Positions 24,111-53,833 of a stretch of DNA of 64,000 bases are shown one piece after another. The translations under genes were made by a program, and so were the position numbers. This DNA is from Paraglaciecola sp. MB-3u-78 (GTDB taxonomy: Bacteria; Pseudomonadota; Gammaproteobacteria; Enterobacterales; Alteromonadaceae): contig NZ_PJCF01000004.1 in NCBI RefSeq assembly GCF_002835935.1, positions 248,001 to 312,000 of the forward strand. Direction: 5' to 3'. Positions within the stretch are counted from its first letter, which is position 1. Each line of letters begins with the position of its first letter. The notes beneath the pieces were generated by a model. That model saw only the letters and a program-made list of their open reading frames with translations. It ran no database searches and had not been told where the DNA came from.

Positions 24111-27100
24111 CTAATGTGTAATGATCAACTTCATGTCAATTTCACAACCCGCAGGATCATTACTCGCACTTGTGGTTGTTGCGCCTAGTTGTTTAATGTC
24201 GTAGGTTAGATATGATTGCGACGTAACTTCGGCATAACTAACAGAACGAGAAAATCGTTTCATACAACCCGATTGAAATTGGCTAACAACATTTGCACTG
24301 CCAATTGGACATGAAGTAAGGCTTTCAATATCGTCTACCCGCATTAACACTCCTGACAAATTGATATTCTCTCCTTCGTGGATTACAAATGTTTGCTGAC
24401 CATAAACCCCAGCATTTTGAGAAAGTTGGCGGTACAACATACGACCTTCACTAGATAAATCAAAATAACGATTACCATCTTCATCTGTTTTTACTACCGC
24501 AGGTTTAACAATTGAATCATTCGTTACACTAGTTTTGACTAAGCCGCGGATAATATGTCTCGAGGCTGCTAAATCAACCGCGACTGACATAAGATCTTTT
24601 GGAGTTAAAAGAACATTGTCAATATCTCTAATATTAGCACCTTCAATGTAATAACGACTATGTGCATCAGACTCAAGTCTATTTACTTGATTAGCTTTAA
24701 TTACGTCAAAAGACACTGCTTCCCTAAATATTTTCATTTCAGAGCCTTTCATGCTGCCATAATAGGATAATCCGGGCGCGTATTTTTTGTTTGGAGAAAT
24801 GATATTATCCATCTCAATTGATCGATTTAGTGAAATAAAACTAGTTTGATTAGGATCTCTTTCAATACCAACACATGAATAAGAGCCATTACCAAGAGTA
24901 TGCCTTAAGTTATCTAAAGGAACAGGTACCTTGCCGTTGAGAACAAGATTACCATTTGTATCAAATGAAGGCGTCTGCCACTGCATTAGTAAACGTGCAT
25001 CACCATGATGCTCAAAATATTCAATTTCAATAGTTTTCCAACCGGGTTGAGAAACTGTTAATTTAAATTCTTTATTTTGATTAGAATTTAGAGACCATTC
25101 ATCATTAACGCCCGGCCATTCGACCCCTTCACCACTTACTGTCATTCGAAACCCATCATCAGAATTAATGTGTATGAAATAATCAGCATCTTCAAAAAAT
25201 ACTTTTGGCAGCCAAGTAGCAGGATCATATGTAGGATTGCCATCGGTATCTAGTATGGGAGTAGTACCATCAGATTCAAACAGCTGATCACCAGTTTGAG
25301 GATCTAGTATGACATTCCCATCACTATCTAATTTAGTAAATGACTTTAACCCTTCACCTAAATAGATCTGGCCACTCCATTTAACTTTGAAATCGTTATC
25401 CGCTGCCGGAAGTCCACCCCGCCCCCAATTAACATAAGCACTTGCGTTATATCCGCGGTCACCAAAGTTTAGTGGTAGATAATCGTCACAAGTAGTTGCA
25501 TCAAATTCTGGAGATCCTTCACAATAGCTCACTTCCATAAGCAGCCCTCTGGTAAAGTCAGTCGAATCAGGAATCTCACCTGGTGGTAAAATAGTCTGGT
25601 TAACGAGTTGTTGATGACCTGATGCTAAGGGTCTTACTGTTCCTTCTGGGGTATAAGCAAATTCATCAGAACTGGAAAGGATACGATTTCCTTGCTCTGC
25701 TCCATCATTCCCCTCCCCATATAGCCACCACAAAATATTTGTAAGCTCTTCGCAATCTTCCTGAGGATTTAGAGCACATTCTCCCTCACCCATATACCCT
25801 AAATAAATGGACTCATAACTTACATGAACTAACGCATCTCTTTGTAAAGGATTAATTAAAGCGCTATCAATTTCACTTTTATCGTCAGTACCATCGCCAT
25901 CGGTATCAACTTTATTCGCATTGGTAATGTAACCATTGAAATTATTTGCTTCTTCATAATCTGTTAATCCATCTCCGTCTGAATCGGCTTTAGTAGGGTT
26001 TGTATAAATAATACCCCAGGGCTCTAACTCTCCGGTAAGTATTACGGTGTAACCGGTTATTACTTCAGCATGATCTGTTAAGCCATCCTCATCAGTATCT
26101 TGTAAAAGTGGATTAGTACCATACGCATCCGGATTTATTACCAAGTTAAACCCTGTAAAAAACGATTGAATATTTGCATAGTCAAAGACACTGAAGCTAT
26201 ATTCTTCGCTGCCATCAATAGAAGTATGAGTAATGGAGCGAAACTCTTGATAATCATCGATACCATCATTGTCGGTATCGGCGCTGTTTGGATCACTACC
26301 AATATCACGCTCTACATAATCTGGTAAACCGTCGAAATCAGAATCTGCTAATACTGAACTTGGACGAACTAATAAGCCTACTGTCGAATTATTGATAGAA
26401 ACTATCCAACCGCGAGCTTCGAGTGCATCTGACAAACCATCGAAATCACTGTCTCTGAAATTATCTCCATCGTTTTTAGTGGGATCGGCACCAATTGCCA
26501 CTTCAAAACCATCGGGTATAGCATCATTGTCGCTATCTCTTCGTAATGGGTCGGTAAATACTATACGACCATAGAGTTTTACATCTTTGCCTTCAGGAAT
26601 AGGTAACCAAGGCTCTACATATTTTGCATCAGTAATACCAATCGGTTGACCTGCCGAATTCCAAACAGCTGGCGCGTAAGGGGCTAATGTTGTGTTTTCT
26701 GCTTTATAAACCACCACATTAGTGCCATCTGCTGGATTCGTAGGATAAACAACAGGAATATCAACACTATTTAACTCTCGGTCAGGTCCAGCAGCGATAA
26801 ACCACTCAGATACCGTTTGATCGTTGCCTACTGGTTGTGTTTCCAAAATACCGTTTAAACCTGCGGTAATAATGATATCGCCTACTTTGGTCCTACTTCC
26901 ATAGGAAATACGTTGAATATCATCACCTTGTGCAACTGTATTCACTATCCCCCAAGTTTTAGTTGAGGATACACAACTATTTGCAATGGGATCATAACAC
27001 TCAGTTTCAGCAGTTTCGATAATAGCCATGCCAGCAGCAAAGCCAAACAATTCATCACCATCACTGACTCGATCATCATCGGTATCACTTGAAAGCGGAT

Positions 27101-30100
27101 CGGTTGCAGGCAAATTCACACTGGAGTTTGAATATTCATCATCATTATTGAGACTGGTATCAATAATGCCATTGGGACCAGGTAAAATACCGACTGTAGC
27201 AAACATTAGGTTTCGATTAAATCGACTACTTTCAGGGTCAGTAATGTCAACAAATGCATAGACATCATCGCCTTGAGCTTGGGTATCTAACATGCCATTT
27301 TTGCCAACTATAATTGCACTGGCTTTATCCATAGCCACAGTCCGGTCAATACATAAAGCATCACTTCGAGGATCATCATCCTTACAAAATTCTCGCAAAT
27401 CTTGCTCTTGAATATCCCATAACCCATCATTGTCAGAGTCTGGTGTTGCCGGACTTGAAAACACTCGTTTTAATTGACCATTTCGACTAATTAACCAACC
27501 TAATTTGGCTTCAACTAAATCACTAATGCCATCGCGATCACTATCCATAGAATCAGGTAAACCATCTCCATAAACAGCTGGGTCTTTACCTACATTGTCC
27601 GCACTAATGAAATATTCAAGTTGCTCGAGTGTTTTCTTCAGGTAACGATTATTAATCACTATAGGCACAAAATCATCGTTATTGTAGTTATCAACAGCAC
27701 TATCTACCGAACCGAAGAGGAATTCTTCATGGGCAAACAATCCGTCTTTATCTAAGTCTTGCAGAAAAGCTAAACGAATTGACTGACCTGCTTTTAATTC
27801 AATTTGGTCAAAATCAACAGAGGTAGGCATGTCACCTTCAAGTCTTGCAAACCAATTTGCACCGTAATCACCGTTACGGAATGTTTTGACCCGTACTAAT
27901 CCTTTAGGACCATCACAACTACAATCAGCAGTAGTCGCTAAACAATATTGCCCAGCTATTTGTGGTAATGACGAAGCAACAGAACAGGTTCGCTGTAGTT
28001 CATAACCACTCATAAACTCTTGTTCGTCACCGATGCTTTGTATTGAATCTAGGACACCATTCTTACCAGGGTCAATGACTAAGGTCCTAGGTGCAATACC
28101 GCTAGAACCAAAAGGAATTAACTGCACATCATCGCCCTGAGCTAAGGTATCTACTTTTTTATTAACCCCGGCAATAATACCGGTACTTACAGAGCTATTG
28201 CGCAATAAATCACCTATTGCCGCTTTTGTGGTGAGAATCCCATCGGCACCAGCCGTTATTATATTGCCATTTTCAACGTCATCACCGTCGGCAGTAGTAC
28301 TTAGATTGCCGTCTGGTCCGGCATCAATATAATCTTCAGATGTATCGTGCTGATTAAGACCGAGCACATTTTCTAGTAAATAGCCTAAAGATAATCCTTT
28401 GTTCTTACCCGAACCATCAAATCCACCAAGGTAAGTTTTATTGTTTAAAACGCCATTGGTCGCTACTTGATAATTTTCACTACCAAGTTCACCAAAATCA
28501 AAGCTAATTCCTGCTGTACGATCATGTACAGTTTGGCTGCTAAACGCAAAATTACGCTGGTATTCATCGGCAATATCATAATTTACCACTTTGAAAACTA
28601 AGCTTTTCGGGTCACGCATTAATGTTTCAATTACAGCTGGGAAAACATCATTATTAGCAAACACAAATGGCCCTTTACTGCCATCAAATGGTCCAATATT
28701 GATTTCTAAATCATTGCCAGTAATCAAAGTTGAATCAGCAATTAAAGTAGCGATGGGTAAGTAGCGAGATGGATTTTGTGGATCTACTTGTAATACCGAT
28801 ATCTCTAAATTTTTAACAGTAAATGCTACATCACCTTTATTCTGAACATTAATATTGGCACTAATTCTGGCAGCAGTTAATTCACGCGTTACCTCTTGGC
28901 CTTTAGCTTGTTCATTAAACTTAATTAACGAATTCTCTAGTGCACGCTGTGCTTCTCGGGCACTTTCTGTATCAATTTGAGTATTAGTACCGGTATGTGA
29001 CTCAGTGGTCCCACCTAAACCAACTTCTATAAATAAACGATCAAAAAGTGATGTTAAATAACAGGCCCAACAAGCTACTTCGGCTCCATTTACCGATGAA
29101 TGATCGGCTTGAGCATCTCTTAAACCAAAACCCACATCCCATGAGAATGAACTAGTGTTTTCTCTAAACGTTAATGTGCTATTGGCAAAAGATGTGTTTT
29201 CTGAGCTACTCAGAAAAGCGCTCGTACTGGATTCACTACTAACGTTTTCGCCTTCGCTATTCACATAAGTATAACGTTCATCAATTTGTAGATTAATACC
29301 GTCTACTTCGATATCTAATTCTGGCATATCAGCCACTTTTGGATCACGATTTAACGAAATTATTTCTTCGTCGTCAGTAAACTGGTCGCCATCGGTATCA
29401 GCCAGCAGCGGTGAGGTAAGGAAGAAAGTATGTTCAGCTCCGTCCGGTAACGAATCACCATCGGTGTCTTGCTCAGCAGGCGCACTATAGATAACGTTCC
29501 ACTCGATATAGTCGCTCAAACCATCGGCATCTGTATCAGGTGAACGTGGATCCATACCAAATGCCCACTCTTCACCGTCCGATAGACCATCTTGATCGGT
29601 ATCCTTAGTGGTAGGGTCGCTGGTCACTTCACGAAGAATAGTTTCACCACTAACTAGCCTAATCATTACGGTCGTGCCGCGCAATTCTTCATTATCTGCC
29701 AGACCATCGCTATCACTGTCGACTAAACCAGATACTGAATCACCACTATCAATCAGATCATTGTTGTTCGCATCGTCCCAATTGTCGACAGAACCATCTT
29801 GGTCTTTATCTATAAGTACTAGCGCATTGCCATCAACAATAACTGTGTCACCACCATCAATAATGCCATTGTCATCATTATCAATAAGTTGGTAATTACC
29901 GGTGGCTAAAGACCAATGCTGGGCGATAGGAGGAGAGCCCGGGAAAACCGCACTTCGCGGATCGTAGTTAATGTTAAAAGTACCGTCTTGAGTCGCCAGC
30001 GGATTACCCTGCAGGTCTTTTACATTCACTACTGTTGCACGGTAGGTAACTTCGTTTTGCGAAGTTGTTTGAATATTAACTGACGTATGGGTTGCATCAA

Positions 30101-32426
30101 ACCATGTTACCGCCATGGTGAATACCGTACCCACTTCACTGTTAACATTTTCTTGGGTAAAAACATAGTTGCCTGGCAACAGTGCACTATCGCCCATTAC
30201 TGAACTGAAACTAAGTGTTACACCGGTATTACCAGTTGATATTGCACCAACTACCTTAGGTAATTGAGTCGGGTCTGACACACTGGTCGCCCCTTCGTAG
30301 TAAGCATCAATACTGTTAGCGCTGGCTAAAATAATATTACCACTGGTGTCAGTAACACCATCAGTAATCTGAACATAATAAGTTGTACCATCTACTAAGG
30401 TTTCTGTGGTTAAGGAAACTTGTGTATGGCTTGGATTCAATTCTGCACCAAGCACTTGCACTTTCCCATTCGTACAACTTCCGTTTGCAGCAAACGGCTG
30501 CGTACAAACACGATAGTAAAGTGGGTTTGCAGCGCCCGCGTTTACTTCCTCACTAAAGGTCAAGGTAATACTATTAGTACTAGTAAAAGTGAGATTAGCC
30601 ACACTAGGAGAGAATTTATCTTCAAGTAATAAACCAAACGAACCAGAAGACAGATTTGGATCCATACTATTATGCGGTAATGGCATTGCCTGATCTGTCA
30701 CTTGTGAGCTTACGTCAACTTTATGGGGAACTCGAGGAGCAATATTCTCTACAGTCAGAACGACTTCAGTATTTGACTCAACAAGCTGCGCAGAAAGAAC
30801 CGGTAAATTAATCAATGTACCTGAGCTACAAGTTTGAAATTCAGGACAAAACGTTATGGTGTAAAAATTGGGAGTCTCAGCTGAAACATCAAGTGGCTCA
30901 CTAAAATATAAACGAACTCTATTACTTGATTCCGCAATTGAGGCAATTAAGTAGGGTTGTTGCGTATCTTTAAGGTCAAATCCAACAAACAAAGCAGGTA
31001 CAGGTGGATTAGCCATTAATAAACCTTCAGCACTGTGAATGCTACTTGCAACCAATTGATAATCAATTCGGGCTTGTGGTGTCGTAGTTAAAATAACATG
31101 CCATTGATCATCACCAAATATCGCATTAATAATATCAAGCGATGGATTTTCTACCCGATATTTGGTCCAATCAAGCGCATCATCATCCATTCTTTCGGTA
31201 AAATTTACCAATACATGAGTATTATCTGTGGCGATAGCACTGGCAATACTAGGGGCGCTCAGTCCGCTACCAATAAATTTAGCAACCGTAAAATCTGCAA
31301 TAATATTGCCCGGCGCAGGAGATGCTCGATCTGTTACATTAGTGACAGATAAGTAGTAATTAACTCCGCTGTCTTGAGGGCCTGTAATGATTGAAACTTG
31401 GGTATTTAGACCAACCAATTCACTAGAGATAACACTCAATTGATTGTTCTCAGGGCACTGACCGGCATTATCAAATGCAATTGAACAAATTTGGTAATGT
31501 TTTGGCTCTGCAGCTGTATCCCAAAGCGGTTCGTTAAAAGTTGCTATAACACTATTGTGAGATGTTGATACTGCACTTAGTAATAATGGAGCTGTGATAT
31601 CTGTTTCAGAAATCCCAAAAAAGTAGCCGCCATTTCGATCTGGGTGAATAAGCTTACTACCCGGTTGAGTGATGATATTAGTGATAACTAAGACATATTC
31701 TATGTTGGTCATCGGAGTAGTAGTTAGCGTAATCAAACGAGGATCTTTGTTATCCACTTCAGCTGCTAGAACCTCAATTCTACCTTCTTCAACATTTGGA
31801 ACACTCCCATTGGGCGCTAGAATTCGATAGGCAGACACAAGTTCAGCCGAACCTTTATTCATATCACGGTCCATGGTTACCAGCACCGAGGTGTTTGACA
31901 TAGCGGTAACGGACATAACAAAAGGTTCTGGCCCTGTGCTACCAATAAAGTTGTCGGCGTTAGTAAAAGTAATAGTCGGGTCTACTTTCGTTGTCTTTGA
32001 GGTAGAACTGGACATTGCTTTGGCTTGTGTACTTGAACCTTGTGAATTCAACACAATGGTGTAAAGGATTGGGTCCTGGGCCTCTGTTTGTAATACAGCA
32101 CCTAAGCCGTCAGCGTAAAATGATAATTTTTCTACCTCTAGCTTTTGGCCCGCCCCAGAAATAATACTGATATCGCTTGCTTTGAGCAGATCTGAGGTAA
32201 CAACCTTGTCAAAGGTGAATTCTATAAAATGCTGACTGAGGGATTGTGTATTGGTCACTTGCGGCGGTGTTTCTATCACCACTTCTGTGGGTGGTGTGAC
32301 AACGGGTGGTGCTGTGCCAACTGGCGGTGGGGTAACAGTAGCAGGCGTATCACCACCGCTCCCTCCACAAGCACTTAGAAACAAAGCTGTAAGTAAAATA
32401 GTGCATTGTGCATGCATCTTAATCAT
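24111..32426 (-). CDS. Giant lipoprotein with Ig-like, calcium-binding and PA14 domains
   Basis: A 2771-residue surface lipoprotein. A signal peptide ends LSAC (Cys20), then comes a Gly/Pro/Thr-rich linker to about residue 58. Residues 60-840 hold about seven related beta-sandwich repeats of the SbsA/SwmB Ig-like type (HNSVIATFNEPL, NSITLTFSEEV and so on). Two clusters of thrombospondin type 3-like DxDxDG calcium loops lie at about 845-1025 and 1960-2185. Between them is a run of GxNGxLDT...GDD motifs (about 1365-1855). A PA14-type domain (YFIHINSDDGFRMTVSG) sits at about 2340-2480. Start ATG 32426 follows AGAGGG. Adhesion or glycan binding at the cell surface is likely; there is no partner gene. 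Confidence 0.88.
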   Translation of the reverse strand: MIKMHAQCTILLTALFLSACGGSGGDTPATVTPPPVGTAPPVVTPPTEVVIETPPQVTNTQSLSQHFIEFTFDKVVTSDLLKASDISIISGAGQKLEVEKLSFYADGLGAVLQTEAQDPILYTIVLNSQGSSTQAKAMSSSTSKTTKVDPTITFTNADNFIGSTGPEPFVMSVTAMSNTSVLVTMDRDMNKGSAELVSAYRILAPNGSVPNVEEGRIEVLAAEVDNKDPRLITLTTTPMTNIEYVLVITNIITQPGSKLIHPDRNGGYFFGISETDITAPLLLSAVSTSHNSVIATFNEPLWDTAAEPKHYQICSIAFDNAGQCPENNQLSVISSELVGLNTQVSIITGPQDSGVNYYLSVTNVTDRASPAPGNIIADFTVAKFIGSGLSAPSIASAIATDNTHVLVNFTERMDDDALDWTKYRVENPSLDIINAIFGDDQWHVILTTTPQARIDYQLVASSIHSAEGLLMANPPVPALFVGFDLKDTQQPYLIASIAESSNRVRLYFSEPLDVSAETPNFYTITFCPEFQTCSSGTLINLPVLSAQLVESNTEVVLTVENIAPRVPHKVDVSSQVTDQAMPLPHNSMDPNLSSGSFGLLLEDKFSPSVANLTFTSTNSITLTFSEEVNAGAANPLYYRVCTQPFAANGSCTNGKVQVLGAELNPSHTQVSLTTETLVDGTTYYVQITDGVTDTSGNIILASANSIDAYYEGATSVSDPTQLPKVVGAISTGNTGVTLSFSSVMGDSALLPGNYVFTQENVNSEVGTVFTMAVTWFDATHTSVNIQTTSQNEVTYRATVVNVKDLQGNPLATQDGTFNINYDPRSAVFPGSPPIAQHWSLATGNYQLIDNDDNGIIDGGDTVIVDGNALVLIDKDQDGSVDNWDDANNNDLIDSGDSVSGLVDSDSDGLADNEELRGTTVMIRLVSGETILREVTSDPTTKDTDQDGLSDGEEWAFGMDPRSPDTDADGLSDYIEWNVIYSAPAEQDTDGDSLPDGAEHTFFLTSPLLADTDGDQFTDDEEIISLNRDPKVADMPELDIEVDGINLQIDERYTYVNSEGENVSSESSTSAFLSSSENTSFANSTLTFRENTSSFSWDVGFGLRDAQADHSSVNGAEVACWACYLTSLFDRLFIEVGLGGTTESHTGTNTQIDTESAREAQRALENSLIKFNEQAKGQEVTRELTAARISANINVQNKGDVAFTVKNLEISVLQVDPQNPSRYLPIATLIADSTLITGNDLEINIGPFDGSKGPFVFANNDVFPAVIETLMRDPKSLVFKVVNYDIADEYQRNFAFSSQTVHDRTAGISFDFGELGSENYQVATNGVLNNKTYLGGFDGSGKNKGLSLGYLLENVLGLNQHDTSEDYIDAGPDGNLSTTADGDDVENGNIITAGADGILTTKAAIGDLLRNSSVSTGIIAGVNKKVDTLAQGDDVQLIPFGSSGIAPRTLVIDPGKNGVLDSIQSIGDEQEFMSGYELQRTCSVASSLPQIAGQYCLATTADCSCDGPKGLVRVKTFRNGDYGANWFARLEGDMPTSVDFDQIELKAGQSIRLAFLQDLDKDGLFAHEEFLFGSVDSAVDNYNNDDFVPIVINNRYLKKTLEQLEYFISADNVGKDPAVYGDGLPDSMDSDRDGISDLVEAKLGWLISRNGQLKRVFSSPATPDSDNDGLWDIQEQDLREFCKDDDPRSDALCIDRTVAMDKASAIIVGKNGMLDTQAQGDDVYAFVDITDPESSRFNRNLMFATVGILPGPNGIIDTSLNNDDEYSNSSVNLPATDPLSSDTDDDRVSDGDELFGFAAGMAIIETAETECYDPIANSCVSSTKTWGIVNTVAQGDDIQRISYGSRTKVGDIIITAGLNGILETQPVGNDQTVSEWFIAAGPDRELNSVDIPVVYPTNPADGTNVVVYKAENTTLAPYAPAVWNSAGQPIGITDAKYVEPWLPIPEGKDVKLYGRIVFTDPLRRDSDNDAIPDGFEVAIGADPTKNDGDNFRDSDFDGLSDALEARGWIVSINNSTVGLLVRPSSVLADSDFDGLPDYVERDIGSDPNSADTDNDGIDDYQEFRSITHTSIDGSEEYSFSVFDYANIQSFFTGFNLVINPDAYGTNPLLQDTDEDGLTDHAEVITGYTVILTGELEPWGIIYTNPTKADSDGDGLTDYEEANNFNGYITNANKVDTDGDGTDDKSEIDSALINPLQRDALVHVSYESIYLGYMGEGECALNPQEDCEELTNILWWLYGEGNDGAEQGNRILSSSDEFAYTPEGTVRPLASGHQQLVNQTILPPGEIPDSTDFTRGLLMEVSYCEGSPEFDATTCDDYLPLNFGDRGYNASAYVNWGRGGLPAADNDFKVKWSGQIYLGEGLKSFTKLDSDGNVILDPQTGDQLFESDGTTPILDTDGNPTYDPATWLPKVFFEDADYFIHINSDDGFRMTVSGEGVEWPGVNDEWSLNSNQNKEFKLTVSQPGWKTIEIEYFEHHGDARLLMQWQTPSFDTNGNLVLNGKVPVPLDNLRHTLGNGSYSCVGIERDPNQTSFISLNRSIEMDNIISPNKKYAPGLSYYGSMKGSEMKIFREAVSFDVIKANQVNRLESDAHSRYYIEGANIRDIDNVLLTPKDLMSVAVDLAASRHIIRGLVKTSVTNDSIVKPAVVKTDEDGNRYFDLSSEGRMLYRQLSQNAGVYGQQTFVIHEGENINLSGVLMRVDDIESLTSCPIGSANVVSQFQSGCMKRFSRSVSYAEVTSQSYLTYDIKQLGATTTSASNDPAGCEIDMKLIITH

Positions 32427-50339: not shown

Positions 50340-50940
50340 GGTAAACCCCCGGCTCTGCCGAGGAGACTCGCATAGGTTTTACCGTTACCGTGGTGCAGGT
50401 ATCTTTCGTATCTCGACCAAAAGAACGAAGGAAAAAACCTATTCGAAATTATAAAAGTTTGGCCCATACAAGGTGGGATTGTAAATACCATATCGTCTTT
50501 ATTCCCAAGAAAAGGCGAAAGATTATATTTGGAACGTTAAGAAAATATCTGGGAGAAATATTTCACGAATTGGCGCAGCAAAAAGGAGTAGTGATAGAAG
50601 AGGGGCACTTAATGAAGGATCACGTCCATATGTGTTTGAGCATACCTCCAAAGTTAGCGGTTTAAAATGTAGTAGGTTACCTGAAAGTAAAAAGTGCAAT
50701 ATCAATAGCTCGAAATTTTAAAGGTAAACAAAAGAATTTCGCAGGGGAAGCCTTTTGGGCTAGAGGGTATTTTGTATCTACAGTAGGACTTGACGAAGAA
50801 ATGGTTAGGGAATATATCCGAAATCAAGAAAAGAATGACGTTGACAGAGAGCAGCTAAAATTCGGTATTTAACGCGCCTTTGGCGCTTACTTTAGCCTTT
50901 TTAGGGCGTCATCTAATAAGCCCCCGGCTCTGCCGGTGGT
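50340..50940 (+). mobile_element. IS200/IS605-type element with both hairpin ends
   Basis: About 600 bases. The left end carries the hairpin CGGCTCTGCCG at 50350-50360. The right end has a related CCGGCTCTGCCGG at 50924-50936 and, just after the transposase stop, GCGCCTTTGGCGC at 50874-50886. Such imperfect palindromes near the ends, without terminal inverted repeats, are how single-strand transposing IS200/IS605 elements mark their ends. The exact tips and target tetranucleotide were not fixed. The only gene is the transposase pseudogene. Confidence 0.8.
50390..50872 (+). pseudogene. tnpA: TnpA (Y1 HUH) transposase with one in-frame stop
   Basis: The frame encodes a typical IS200/IS605 TnpA: SLAHTRWDCKYHIVFIPKKR, then EEGHLMKDHVHMCLSIPP with the HUH pair His-Val-His, then a TAA at 50663-50665, and afterwards in the same frame NVVGYLKVKSAIS, FWARGYFVSTVG and EEMVREYIRNQEK with the likely catalytic Tyr. 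Family members have Ala/Gln-Val-Val at the stop position. The single stop, with no frameshift, indicates recent inactivation. It could be moved only by a transposase supplied elsewhere. Confidence 0.88.
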
Positions 50941-51374
50941 ACTTTAACTCTAGTGGGGAGTATCTATTACTTTATCTACGGCACATGCACTTTGCAAAAC
51001 GAGTCAACAAATATGCTCGTTAGGTCAATTTTGTTGAGTGCTTTAAAATAAAGCGTACTTTTAAATACCGCCTAATTTTCTTACGCATTAACTTGTACAA
51101 ATAATCCACTAAATTACTTAAATACCAACAAAATCAATGCCTGTTGCATAGATCAAGTATGTGTACTAATCTTCCTGTACTCGAATAAATCGAGGGAATT
51201 AAATGGAACGAAATAATGAATTATTTCGAGCGCCACGGTCCTAGGGATATGGAGTTAGTTTTATTCAGGGGTGCCCAAAGGGCAGCTCTCCCCCCATTTC
51301 TGTTTCATTACTGTTTGTTTTCTTATACCGCCTGCTTAATTTCCCTTTAACCGGGGGCAACATGGAGTGTCACA
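50941..51374. other. Promoter region of the caspase operon
   Basis: 434 bases without a gene. It holds CTCGA-ATAAA-TCGAG at 51180-51194 and the perfect palindrome at 51209-51228 (listed separately). Further on is a GC-rich stem GTGCCC-AAA-GGGCAG near 51276-51290 followed by CTCTCCCCCC. Together they look like operators plus a structured leader; no transcription start can be fixed by eye. A 13-codon frame starting at 51204 with GGGAATTAA before it is too short to call. Confidence 0.5.
51209..51228. promoter_or_regulatory. Perfect 20-base palindrome upstream of the caspase gene
   Basis: CGAAATAAT, GA, ATTATTTCG: two exact 9-base arms. Together with a weaker CTCGA/TCGAG pair 15 bases to the left it could be a repressor operator. 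No dedicated regulator gene is adjacent. Confidence 0.55.
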
Positions 51375-53360
51375 ATGCCTGAAAAACACGCTTTACTCAT
51401 TGGAATAGACAACTACAGCAATTTCGAGGAGCGTTACCAGCTTAGGGGCTGCGTCAATGATGCAAAGTTGATGAAAAGCGTCTTGGTCGACCACTTTAAT
51501 TTTAAGGAATCGGAAATAACCGAACTGCATAATGCCGCAGCAAGCCAGCGGGGTATTCTTGACGCGATGGAAAACCTAGTTGAGCAGATAGGGCAGGATG
51601 ACATAGTCGTGTTTCATTTTAGTGGGCATGGATCCCAGCGAAAATCAGCCGATACCGATGAGGGAACCGGTATGAACAGTACGATCACGTCCGCCGATAG
51701 CGGATACATGGATCCGTTTCCTAACCTAGATATTATCGACAACGTGATCAATGACTGGTTGACACGTCTGGCCAGCAAAACTCGCTATATCTCATTAACG
51801 TTTGACTGTTGCCACTCAGGCACCATCACTCGAGACGCACTTAGTGCAAGGGCAAGAGGCCTACCTGCGGATCCACGGTCTCTGACTGCCATGGGGGTCG
51901 ACAAAACCACACTGCCGCCAGCACCGCGCAAACAGGGCAATGGGGCAAAACCAAGCGGATGGCTGGCACTCAGTGACAACTATGTAGTGATGTCGGGTTG
52001 CCGAGATGACGAGTATTCATATGAATTTGAGACCGAAGGGGGCGGCGAACCTATTAGGAATGGCGCTCTGACCCATTTTCTAACTAATGCCTTGCTTAGT
52101 GCCAAGCCTGGCTCGACCTACAGGGACGTATTCGAACTAGCTAGGCAGGGTGTCAACTCGAAATTCAAGCAGCAACATCCGCAGATTGAAGGTGTCCAAG
52201 ACCGAGAGATTTTTGGCGTTAAGGATATTGAACCGCTGCGTTTCATTGCGGTTGCTGCGGTGGAAGGCGAGAAGGTCACCCTAGCGGGCGGCGCAGCCCA
52301 CGGCCTGTGTGTCAATTCCCTGTGGTCTGCTTACCCACAGGGCACCAAACAAACGAAGGGCCTAACGCCGCTTGCATCCATCGAAATTACACAGGTAGGC
52401 TCACTAACAGCACAGGGCGTGATCCGCAAGGGTGAAGGAAACCTCACCATAGGCGCCCGCTGTGTTGAAGCCGCCGCGTCTGCTGAGCAGTTTCTGCTCA
52501 GTGTCGACCTGAGTCAGATGGATAAAGAGGCAGCTCAAGGACTCGCCGAGGGAATTAAAGCATCCCTCTTGCTTACCATCACCGAGACGCCCGGCGCGGG
52601 TGACTTTTGTGCCTATATTTTGATGCCAGAGGATAAGGTTCGTGCAGGCCTGTCTTTGCCTACAACGATAAATATTGAGGAGCCAACTTGGGCGATGGTT
52701 GATCGCACTAGGGAGCTGGCCATGCCTCTGCATGTGATCAGTAATGAGAAGGCTATCGAAACGATAGTCAGCAATCTTGAGGCAATGGCCCGTTATCGCA
52801 ACGCGCTCAAATTAGACAATCCGGCTAGCCAACTCAACGTTGAGTTCAATATTTTCCATGTAGACTCAGATGGCGAATTGCACAATATCAATGGCGAAGA
52901 CTTTGTCTTCGAAGAAGGTCAAAATCTAGCATTTGAGGTGGTCAATCATGAGCCAAACAACGTCTTTGTGAGCTTGCTGGACTTTGGGCTGACAGGAAAG
53001 GTTTCATTGTTTTATCCTCAAAAAAACAGCAGCGAAATGATTGCTCCCGGTAAGGCCCTTAAAATTGGCGCCGATGAGAGAAAAATCCAGCTCAGCGTTC
53101 TTTCGGAGTTTGTCGGTAATCAGGGTACAGAAACCGTCAAGGCCATTTTCACCAGCGATGAGTCGGATTTCCGCTGGTTACAACAAGAGGGCACGCGCTC
53201 GCTCGCGACCAAGCGCTCATCGCTGCGTCAGCAATTTGAGGCTGCTTATAATGGTCCGCCTACTCGTAATATGTCTTTCGAGACTGAAGCCGAAGCCGAT
53301 ACAGACGAGGACTGGAAAGCAATAGCCCGCTCCTTCGAATTGAAGCGACGGTTAATTTAG
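51375..53360 (+). CDS. Caspase-family protease (metacaspase/orthocaspase) with C-terminal DUF4384
   Basis: A 661-residue protein. The N-terminal peptidase C14 domain (about 1-290) starts KHALLIGIDNYSNFEERYQL and has the catalytic dyad: His85 in FHFSGHGSQR and Cys146 in TFDCCHSGT, with the Asp of LRGCVNDA typical of the family. A linker region (about 300-490) precedes a DUF4384-like beta domain (about 495-600, VFVSLLDFGLTGKVSLFYPQ). No signal peptide or membrane helix is seen. It should cut after basic residues if metacaspase-like. A ribosome site GGAG precedes ATG 51375. Base composition is visibly more GC-rich than neighbouring genes. A membrane protein gene follows after 35 bases. Confidence 0.9.
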   Translation: MPEKHALLIGIDNYSNFEERYQLRGCVNDAKLMKSVLVDHFNFKESEITELHNAAASQRGILDAMENLVEQIGQDDIVVFHFSGHGSQRKSADTDEGTGMNSTITSADSGYMDPFPNLDIIDNVINDWLTRLASKTRYISLTFDCCHSGTITRDALSARARGLPADPRSLTAMGVDKTTLPPAPRKQGNGAKPSGWLALSDNYVVMSGCRDDEYSYEFETEGGGEPIRNGALTHFLTNALLSAKPGSTYRDVFELARQGVNSKFKQQHPQIEGVQDREIFGVKDIEPLRFIAVAAVEGEKVTLAGGAAHGLCVNSLWSAYPQGTKQTKGLTPLASIEITQVGSLTAQGVIRKGEGNLTIGARCVEAAASAEQFLLSVDLSQMDKEAAQGLAEGIKASLLLTITETPGAGDFCAYILMPEDKVRAGLSLPTTINIEEPTWAMVDRTRELAMPLHVISNEKAIETIVSNLEAMARYRNALKLDNPASQLNVEFNIFHVDSDGELHNINGEDFVFEEGQNLAFEVVNHEPNNVFVSLLDFGLTGKVSLFYPQKNSSEMIAPGKALKIGADERKIQLSVLSEFVGNQGTETVKAIFTSDESDFRWLQQEGTRSLATKRSSLRQQFEAAYNGPPTRNMSFETEAEADTDEDWKAIARSFELKRRLI

Positions 53361-53395
53361 CCACTGGATTAGTAACCTCATAAAGGAGAGATAGA

Positions 53396-53833
53396 ATGGG
53401 ACGTTCCATTATTACGAGTGTGCCTACTGCCAGCGAAGCGTCCCGGGGAGGCCCGGGAAGTGAGACTCAGGCGGCGCCAGCCGTAGACGGCTATTCCGAT
53501 GCATTGATGAAGCTTATTCCTGCAGAGGTGATTAGTGTCTATCTGGCGATGCAATCAATTTTGATTAACGGGACGCCCAAACCAAATTGGGTGGCCTTCG
53601 TGGTCGTTTTTATGTTCGGCGTTTTTGCAACCTATTTCTATCTGCGCGTCAGCCTGAAAGTCACCAATAAATTGCAATTGCTGTTATCGGTTGGCGCATT
53701 TTGTGTCTGGGCCTATTCGATGTTACCCCAGGATTGCAGCTGGCATAACGGCACTTACGCCGGACTGTTGTTAATTGCGTACACATTTATAGCGCCCAAA
53801 ATTTCTTTAGATGTAAAAACCCAACCAAAATAG
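53396..53833 (+). CDS. Small polytopic membrane protein downstream of the caspase
   Basis: A 145-residue protein with a polar N-terminus of about 35 residues and about four hydrophobic segments: around 40-58 (IPAEVISVYLAMQSILI), 65-87 (WVAFVVVFMFGVFATYFYL), 94-111 (LQLLLSVGAFCVWAYSML) and 120-137. The element ALMKLIPAEVISVYLA is notable and probably family-defining. AAGGAGAGATAGA before the ATG is a good ribosome site, and it is surely cotranscribed with the caspase gene. I do not recognise a named family. A role as a membrane partner or substrate of the protease is a natural but untested guess. Confidence 0.8.
   Translation: MGRSIITSVPTASEASRGGPGSETQAAPAVDGYSDALMKLIPAEVISVYLAMQSILINGTPKPNWVAFVVVFMFGVFATYFYLRVSLKVTNKLQLLLSVGAFCVWAYSMLPQDCSWHNGTYAGLLLIAYTFIAPKISLDVKTQPK

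What the first reader, a model, noticed from the sequence alone, without database searches (positions are those of the whole stretch)
51375..53833. Caspase-DUF4384 protein paired with a four-helix membrane protein, next to an insertion element
The two genes are 35 bases apart with strong ribosome sites, and both look more GC-rich than the genes on either side, a sign of recent transfer. The protease has an intact His85/Cys146 dyad. Caspase-like proteases joined to membrane-perturbing partners are a known theme in bacterial defence and regulated cell death (for example Gasdermin systems), but this small membrane family, marked by ALMKLIPAEVISVYLA, is not one I can name. The protease might cleave and activate the membrane protein, or the pair may act in surface or stress processing.
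Basis: partly seen in the sequence, partly recalled or inferred. Interest (0 to 1): 0.75.

Follow-up and report, generated by a model that had tools for sequence, protein, structure and literature searches.

The report
Protease-paired membrane protein, probable defence module
A bacterial caspase gene sits next to a gene for a small, unnamed membrane protein whose relatives in other bacteria nearly always sit beside a protease gene, many of them inside predicted anti-invader systems, so it may be the membrane part that such proteases act on or through.

Summary
In detail: 51375-53360 encodes a caspase (C14, His85/Cys146 intact) with DUF4384; 35 bases on, 53396-53833 encodes a 145-residue membrane protein ("MEM") without a Pfam, NCBIfam or PADLOC family. 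Both exceed the other window genes in GC3, and the nearest relatives found lie outside the window's family, so recent transfer is likely. MEM belongs to a wider family. In gammaproteobacteria 6 of 6 loci found pair it with such a caspase; three also carry a caspase-nSTAND1 gene, one a CHAT gene. In 16 of 16 cyanobacterial loci of a class sample it adjoins a trypsin-like protease gene: 11 in VMAP-type conflict operons, 2 with EAD1-TPR genes, 3 with trypsin-NB-ARC/NACHT. Two distant relatives have no adjacent protease. So the partner is a protease of NTPase-linked conflict systems, not caspase alone. MEM's tail starts with a conserved Arg/Ile motif; caspase-linked forms add a fixed Arg-small-x-Pro site (R17), a candidate cut. 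Best reading: MEM is the membrane output, switched by tail cleavage; an anchor or adaptor is nearly as likely. No function was measured. The system kind is known; I found no description of this component in what I could read.

The parts
51375..53360 (+). Caspase (Peptidase_C14) with C-terminal DUF4384, 661 aa; no TM-like segment by hydropathy (no signal-peptide predictor was run)
51627..51629 (+). Codon of catalytic His85 (FSGHG)
   Evidence: invariant in 6 of 6
51810..51812 (+). Codon of catalytic Cys146 (FDCCHSG)
   Evidence: invariant in 6 of 6
52908..53159 (+). DUF4384 domain (residues 512-595)
   Evidence: 27.2 bits, cut-off 27.0
51364..51367 (+). Ribosome site GGAG of the caspase gene
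   Evidence: read from sequence
53383..53389 (+). Ribosome site AAGGAGA of the membrane-protein gene
   Evidence: read from sequence
53396..53833 (+). MEM: 145-aa membrane protein of an unnamed family; predicted helices at residues 33-57, 65-86, 92-108, 119-135
   Evidence: (no family)
53396..53413 (+). Conserved N-terminal motif of MEM (MGRSII; Arg one or two residues before an invariant Ile)
53444..53446 (+). Codon of Arg17 in SRGGP, candidate caspase cut site (invariant in the six caspase-linked MEMs)
   Evidence: cleavage is inference
53510..53533 (+). Core motif KLIPAEVI (residues 39-46) near the start of helix 1
50390..50665 (+). IS200/IS605-type transposase ORF, ended by an in-frame stop (neighbour, not part of the module)

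Best explanation
The two genes are a horizontally acquired cassette of a membrane-located, protease-driven conflict (probably anti-invader) module. Shown here: MEM is a conserved family whose members, apart from two distant ones, stand next to a gene for a protease with intact catalytic residues, of caspase or trypsin type, and often next to NTPase genes (caspase-nSTAND1, trypsin-NB-ARC/NACHT, or VMAP with an AAA gene); the window's genome also carries a caspase-nSTAND1 protein, on another contig. Inferred: an NTPase senses invasion, the protease is switched on, and it cuts the cytosolic N-terminal tail of MEM (in the window most likely after Arg17 in SRGGP); the trimmed or released MEM then changes the membrane (pore, leak or depolarisation), giving growth arrest or death.
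For: Adjacency: 6 of 6 gammaproteobacterial loci with a caspase gene of this type (Pfam C14 plus DUF4384 for the window, L026, L027 and L029). 16 of 16 cyanobacterial loci of a class sample with a neighbouring trypsin-like protease gene: EAD1 and Trypsin_2 in 13 of 13 upstream proteins; Trypsin_2 plus NB-ARC/NACHT in L030 and L033; the sixteenth, L055, by likeness to L033, split there into two overlapping ORFs. Outside the sample, L031, L032 and the Fischerella plasmid L077 fit too. The 16 genomes hold 183 Trypsin_2 matches in about 102 Mb, about one per 560 kb, so adjacency is not chance. Catalytic residues: caspase dyad invariant in 6 of 6; trypsin-type H181, D235, S310 invariant in 13 of 13 (role read from motifs). 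NTPases: nSTAND1; VMAP-C in 11 of 14 scanned downstream proteins from 13 loci; 11 of the 13 loci carry the AAA gene and the long third gene. Own genome: a 993-aa caspase-nSTAND1-TM protein, 73% identical to the Aliiglaciecola one that stands beside MEM there. Tail: M1 and I5 invariant in 23 of 23; in six caspase-linked MEMs the linker keeps only the R and P of [SAT]R[GAS][GAV]P, which fits the basic-residue preference of orthocaspases (abstract start of PMC6426788). The charge pattern suggests a cytosolic tail.
Against: No cleavage, toxicity or phage protection was measured. Trypsin-linked MEMs lack the R17 site; they share only the N-terminal Arg just before Ile, where a cut would remove 4-6 residues, so that Arg may be a docking motif instead. 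R17 and Pro20 are fixed across what looks like only three lineages. Two distant relatives stand without an adjacent protease. Related caspase genes without MEM exist (4 of 7 in the family; the 4 plasmid loci opened of 192 matching records; two of the plasmid caspases scanned show no DUF4384). No pore or toxin fold was recognised and model confidence is modest. The window's caspase-nSTAND1 lies on another contig and is of a different lineage than its MEM. Two of the 13 EAD1-trypsin loci (L059, L061) lack VMAP, AAA and the third gene.
Confidence: 0.42

Rival explanations
1. MEM is a membrane anchor, adaptor or sensor, not an effector: its conserved N-terminal motif and KLIPAEV region hold or gate the protease/NTPase complex at the membrane, as proposed for EACC1, and as the Trypco partners are thought to act beside trypsins; the real target lies elsewhere.
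For: MEM stands beside the trypsin gene, where Trypco1/2 genes are described for other systems (PMC7159879 section 9); no ORF of 60 aa or more lies between the trypsin gene, MEM and the next EAD1 gene in 13 of 13 loci; the strongest conservation is at the tail start and the start of helix 1; MEM is kept while protease and NTPase types change; EACC1 is a membrane partner of caspases (section 33).
Against: EACC1 is described with one TM helix and in the 5' gene; MEM has several predicted helices and is the 3' gene. The fixed Arg-small-x-Pro site occurs in the caspase-linked MEMs only, which suits a substrate better than an anchor.
Confidence: 0.36
2. MEM is a brake: its N-terminal Arg tail sits in the protease active site as a substrate mimic and keeps it off until an NTPase signal removes it.
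For: The Arg near the extreme N-terminus is conserved in both caspase- and trypsin-linked MEMs, and both protease types are expected to prefer basic residues (inference); pairing with proteases whose catalytic residues are kept.
Against: A multi-helix membrane protein is an unusual inhibitor (inference); related caspase genes exist without MEM.
Confidence: 0.1
3. The module serves envelope or stress processing rather than defence.
For: The window neighbourhood looks like ordinary chromosome; the caspase-nSTAND1 partner has a TM-like segment and a C-terminal stretch with sub-threshold likeness to ABC_transp_aux/DUF4350 that could be periplasmic.
Against: Patchy distribution (3 of 295 family genomes) with signs of transfer, and residence of relatives in VMAP-type operons, one beside an annotated reverse transcriptase, are typical of conflict systems.
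Confidence: 0.08
4. Chance neighbours brought in by one transfer; no joint function.
For: Only two genes in the window, with a broken IS200-type gene nearby.
Against: The same pairing in 6 of 6 gammaproteobacterial loci across 41-85% MEM identity, and protease pairing in cyanobacteria.
Confidence: 0.04

Closest known systems
VMAP (vWA-MoxR-VMAP) ternary conflict systems with EAD1-trypsin (Kaur et al. 2020, PMC7159879)
   Same: In 11 of 16 sampled cyanobacterial loci MEM stands between an EAD1-trypsin gene and a VMAP-C gene followed by an AAA gene and a long third gene; protease plus NTPase logic
   Different: The window has no VMAP, MoxR, vWA or EAD gene beside it; the sections and passages I read name Trypco1/2 as trypsin partners, not a multi-helix membrane protein
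EACC1-caspase two-gene system (PMC7159879 section 33)
   Same: Two genes: a caspase with a further C-terminal part and a membrane protein; membrane-near caspase activation proposed
   Different: EACC1 is described as a single-TM domain in the 5' gene; MEM has several helices and is the 3' gene; the window caspase scores 44.2 bits against a cut-off of 140 for NCBIfam caspase_w_EACC1
Caspase-nSTAND1 proteins
   Same: Adjacent in L026, L028 and L029 and present elsewhere in the window's genome
   Different: The window's caspase itself has no NTPase domain match
Bacterial gasdermins with caspase-like proteases (Johnson et al., as commented in PMC9079055; only the search listing with the abstract start seen)
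   Same: Works-like analogy: protease next to a membrane-acting partner
   Different: MEM is predicted all-helical, 145 aa and membrane-embedded as made; no gasdermin family match

Membership tests
Orthocaspase / metacaspase-like C14 peptidase | C14 domain with His-Cys dyad | tested here: met
Orthocaspase / metacaspase-like C14 peptidase | Segments that carry the acidic S1 pocket (GCxxDA and DxCHSG) | tested here: met
   GCVNDA and FDCCHSG align with GCINDA and FDSCHSG of solved metacaspases; the pocket role of these residues is recalled
Orthocaspase / metacaspase-like C14 peptidase | Proteolytic activity | not testable with these tools
   needs an assay
VMAP ternary system (window locus) | VMAP, MoxR AAA and vWA genes in order beside the pair | tested here: not met
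   none seen among the flanking ORFs; flanking proteins scanned by Pfam are a DTW protein, an IS200 transposase and a MarR/GNAT-like protein
VMAP ternary system (cyanobacterial MEM loci) | VMAP-C, AAA/MoxR-like and third (vWA) gene in order | tested here: met
   VMAP-C in 11 of 14 proteins from 13 loci; AAA and long third gene by likeness in 11 of 13, Pfam AAA in L056 and L060. A vWA domain was not hit by Pfam in the two third genes scanned and is inferred from order
EACC1 two-gene system | 5' single-TM EACC1 gene and 3' EACC1-type caspase | tested here: not met
   order reversed, several predicted helices; NCBIfam cut-off not reached
Trypco1/Trypco2 | Match to the family model | tested here: inconclusive
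   11 MEMs scanned against Pfam: nothing reached a curated cut-off and no Trypco model was listed; that Pfam holds both models is recalled
Gasdermin | Beta-rich N-terminal pore-forming domain with a C-terminal inhibitory part | tested here: not met
   only helices in the modest-confidence model, 145 aa; no Pfam match
Catalogued anti-phage defence system | PADLOC model for MEM or for a partner that defines a system | tested here: not met
   only the single-protein model PDLC02987 'caspase' for the protease; none for MEM

The most novel reading that the evidence does not exclude
MEM founds a family of proteolysis-switched membrane executioners, unrelated to gasdermins, that bacteria have plugged into both caspase-STAND and trypsin-VMAP systems. 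The same membrane effector is fired by two unrelated protease folds, and its tail site (R-small-x-P, or R-I) has been retuned to the protease at hand.
Probability: 0.28. Interest if true: 0.88.

Novelty: new variant of a known kind. Interest (0 to 1): 0.62.

Why it matters
What the proteases of VMAP and STAND systems act on is not settled: Kaur et al. propose that the peptidase frees effectors from the vWA protein, while the DGR-sensor paper proposes that the peptidase is itself the effector (passages of PMC10907252). A small membrane protein that follows the protease through two protease folds, several NTPase types and two phyla is a concrete candidate for the missing output or anchor, and it is small enough to test by co-expression. 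If it is cut, it would be a second, non-gasdermin way for bacterial proteases to act on the membrane.

Tried and rejected
Phages and viral contigs: no MEM relative. Plasmids: none with the window MEM, one Fischerella plasmid with a cyanobacterial MEM. PDB by sequence: the single MEM gave an immunoglobulin-receptor gamma chain at E=0.045, the profile nothing below E=1; read as chance between helices. Fold: Foldseek PDB 0 matches at E<=0.001, BFVD 0, VIA-align best Z 6.1, with WeiTsing (Z 5.0, rmsd 10.8) and NINJ1 (Z 3.5) among the weak rows; not read as kinship. Sub-threshold Pfam scores of MEMs (best E 0.005; 8xMP at 0.19-6 in three of ten) led nowhere. The caspase model (pLDDT 55.3) was too poor to use. 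Synteny: the two window flanks are not neighbours in G650 (about 570 kb apart) and lie on different contigs in G546, so no empty site was found. PADLOC on 40 of 43 window ORFs (two open-ended ones and the 2771-aa ORF left out): besides the caspase model, the 24 other families shown of 39 are 22 E1-E2, one GlgB and one mad2 model, each matching one gene; 14 families were not shown. I read them as housekeeping likenesses.

Rows dropped: one search listed 135 of 295 genomes at E<=1; 3 (own, G616, G459; E<1e-20) were kept, the next best (2.4e-4, G378) has a stop and covers residues 68-125. G821 (385-aa other membrane protein) dropped, leaving 16 of 17. G1259 (552-aa protein) dropped; G975 and G1280 kept as distant kin. 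L096 was left out of the tree. L031, L032 and L077 are outside the counts of 6 and 16.

Considered and rejected: gasdermin (fold), EACC1 (order, TM number, score), chance pairing (recurrence).
Full report
What is there. Window 51375-53360 (+) encodes a 661-aa caspase: Pfam Peptidase_C14, E=1.6e-27, residues 4-273, then DUF4384 just above its cut-off. Catalytic His85 and Cys146 are present. Its nearest solved sequences are metacaspases (best E=1.1e-16). Window 53396-53833 (+), after 35 bases and a good ribosome site, encodes a 145-aa protein, MEM, with no Pfam, NCBIfam or PADLOC family. AlphaFold2 with 23 rows gives a disordered tail (about residues 1-32) and four helices (pLDDT 67.7). Helices 2-4 are hydrophobic in 23, 18 and 20 of 23 sequences, helix 1 in 8 of 23, so it may be interfacial. 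Loop 3 is acidic (8 K/R, 33 D/E over 23 sequences), while helix 2 with its end and the C-tail are basic (29 vs 3; 38 vs 24); the tail itself is balanced (80 vs 75) and loop 2 nearly so (33 vs 26). This suggests both termini in the cytoplasm, weakly (inference).

Transfer. Of 36 window ORFs of at least 150 aa the caspase has the highest G+C and GC3 (0.506, 0.536); MEM, shorter and not in that set (0.484, 0.534), exceeds all of them but the caspase. The nearest caspase relatives found are in an unclassified gammaproteobacterial MAG (L025, 81%) and a Kangiellaceae MAG (L026, 77%), while the copies in the window's own family (Glaciecola sp. UBA2563 and Aliiglaciecola sp. M165, the contigs of G616 and G459) are about 44% identical. 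MAG contigs can be misbinned, which weakens the host labels of L025-L028. The window's family is inferred to be Alteromonadaceae. MEM was found in 3 of 295 genomes of that family, in no genome but the own one of 369 in a class sample (single-sequence search) and in 2 further of 398 genomes of a phylum sample, both distant. The flanks are not neighbours in the relatives looked at, so the insertion site could not be shown.

The partner rule. In all 6 gammaproteobacterial loci found (window, L025-L029) a caspase gene of this type precedes MEM on the same strand, directly in five (gaps 35, 58, 67, 34 and -11 bases); in L027 a CHAT-domain gene (PF12770, E=2.2e-31) lies between. L028 and L029 continue with a caspase-nSTAND1-TM gene, and L026 has one upstream. 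A profile search in a class sample of cyanobacteria gave 17 of 291 genomes; one is a false match. In 13 of the 16 the gene directly before MEM encodes EAD1 plus Trypsin_2 (13 of 13 by Pfam; putative triad H181, D235, S310 invariant). Downstream, EAD1 was found in 13 and VMAP-C in 11 of 14 scanned proteins from these 13 loci. Eleven of the 13 continue with an AAA gene and a long third gene alike to those of L056 or L060; L059 and L061 do not, and have EAD1-TPR proteins. In the other 3 of the 16, MEM is followed by a trypsin-NB-ARC/NACHT-TPR protein (Pfam for L030 and L033; L055 by likeness, split into two overlapping ORFs). As a yardstick, these 16 genomes carry 183 Trypsin_2 matches in about 102 Mb, so adjoining a trypsin gene 16 times out of 16 is far from chance. 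Outside the sample, L031 and L032 adjoin the same trypsin-NB-ARC type, and a Fischerella plasmid shows the whole VMAP-type layout, with an annotated reverse transcriptase gene downstream.

Limits of the rule. Two remote relatives have no adjacent protease: L074 (taken to be alphaproteobacterial; the group label is my inference), whose protein also begins MGRLV and which lies about 3 kb from an nSTAND1 gene and near a radical-SAM gene, and L075, among housekeeping-like genes. The class of L074's genome gave 1 of 270 (itself). Conversely the caspase does not need MEM: of 7 near-full-length matches in 5 of 290 family genomes, 3 have MEM and 4 do not, one of the 4 with a stop and near a contig end. 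The 4 plasmid relatives opened, of 192 matching records, have no small membrane-protein gene annotated directly behind them; they stand in other company, e.g. further caspases and a lysozyme in Rhizobium, and the two of these caspases scanned show C14 but no DUF4384. MEM therefore follows proteases; this caspase type does not always have MEM. Phyla other than Pseudomonadota and Cyanobacteriota were reached only by the pattern-based scan of genome contigs and the plasmid search.

The third component in this genome. The window's genome has one other match to the caspase profile at E<=1e-5: a 993-aa caspase-nSTAND1-TM protein on contig C67, 73% identical to the Aliiglaciecola protein that stands next to MEM there; its G+C is 0.499, the flanks 0.398 and 0.441. 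Its GHG and DCC motifs are present. The Kangiellaceae version, which would match the window's MEM lineage, is only 37% identical. So the parts may work together in trans, but were probably acquired separately.

Mechanism. The window caspase, one EAD1-trypsin and one trypsin-NB-ARC protein show no TM-like segment (no signal-peptide predictor was run), so a cytosolic MEM tail would be within reach. In all 23 aligned MEMs Met1 and Ile5 are invariant and an Arg stands one or two residues before that Ile: R-I in the 17 trypsin-linked rows, R-[SA]-I in the 6 caspase-linked ones. Residue 2 is always G, S or P, so the initiator Met should be removed (inference). Within the linker of the six caspase-linked MEMs only Arg17 and Pro20 are fixed, as [SAT]-R-[GAS]-[GAV]-P; small residues after Arg suit a metacaspase cut (recalled). 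The protease type and the host phylum go together here, so this difference may also be plain ancestry. The caspase keeps the GCxxDA and DCCHSG segments of Arg-specific metacaspases (pocket role recalled). I therefore rank tail cleavage that switches a membrane effector first (0.42), an anchor or adaptor akin to Trypco or EACC1 second (0.36), a protease brake third (0.10). Shown: the proteins, their intact catalytic residues, their recurrent pairing and the fixed residues. Inferred: order of events, cleavage, membrane action, defence role.

Comparison with print. Kaur et al. 2020 (PMC7159879; sections 9, 20, 32 and 33 read, plus passages) describe VMAP, iSTAND, EACC1 and NucA systems, with Trypco1/2 as partners of trypsins. 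Passages of the 2021 paper (PMC8195603) describe EACC2, including multi-TM domains fused to such caspases that might form pores. Passages of PMC10907252 describe DGR-diversified sensors in VMAP systems. None of what I read names a separate multi-helix membrane protein between trypsin and VMAP or behind a caspase. Searches in the held library; of their hits only these three papers were opened. Source-data tables and supplements were not readable here, so the family may be listed there without discussion. Verdict: a known kind of system with an apparently undescribed membrane component.

Noticed in passing
G000 contig C67, locus L086 6489-9470: The window's genome carries a caspase-nSTAND1-TM protein far from the pair, 73% identical to the one beside MEM in Aliiglaciecola and with raised G+C.
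   Followed up: partly
window 50390-50872: IS200/IS605-type transposase gene interrupted by an in-frame stop, upstream of the caspase.
   Followed up: partly
L094-L097: A second Alteromonadaceae branch of this caspase without MEM; three of the four loci (L094-L096) carry a three-TM protein with a VTYAVxGWLILQVAGLTFxPLGxP segment nearby, two (L094, L096) a protein with a trypsin-like look, one (L096) a CHAT-like gene; a similar three-TM segment is at the edge of L026.
   Followed up: partly
L027 2219-4450: A CHAT-domain protein with one TM-like segment between caspase and MEM; matches the PADLOC SAVED_CHAT model (E=7.6e-19).
   Followed up: partly
L078 (Rhizobium leguminosarum plasmid): Cluster of four caspase-family genes and a lysozyme gene: here a lysozyme gene follows the caspase.
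   Followed up: no
L059 5902-8932, L061 5026-8877: EAD1-trypsin, MEM and EAD1-TPR genes without VMAP or AAA genes: a reduced layout that may show the minimal unit.
   Followed up: partly
L075 8021-8599: Remote MEM-like 192-aa protein (RLIPGEILGAY) among housekeeping-like genes of another proteobacterium, without protease: may be a domesticated or ancestral form.
   Followed up: no
window 24111-32426: 2771-aa ORF that starts like a lipoprotein, the largest in the window; not studied.
   Followed up: no
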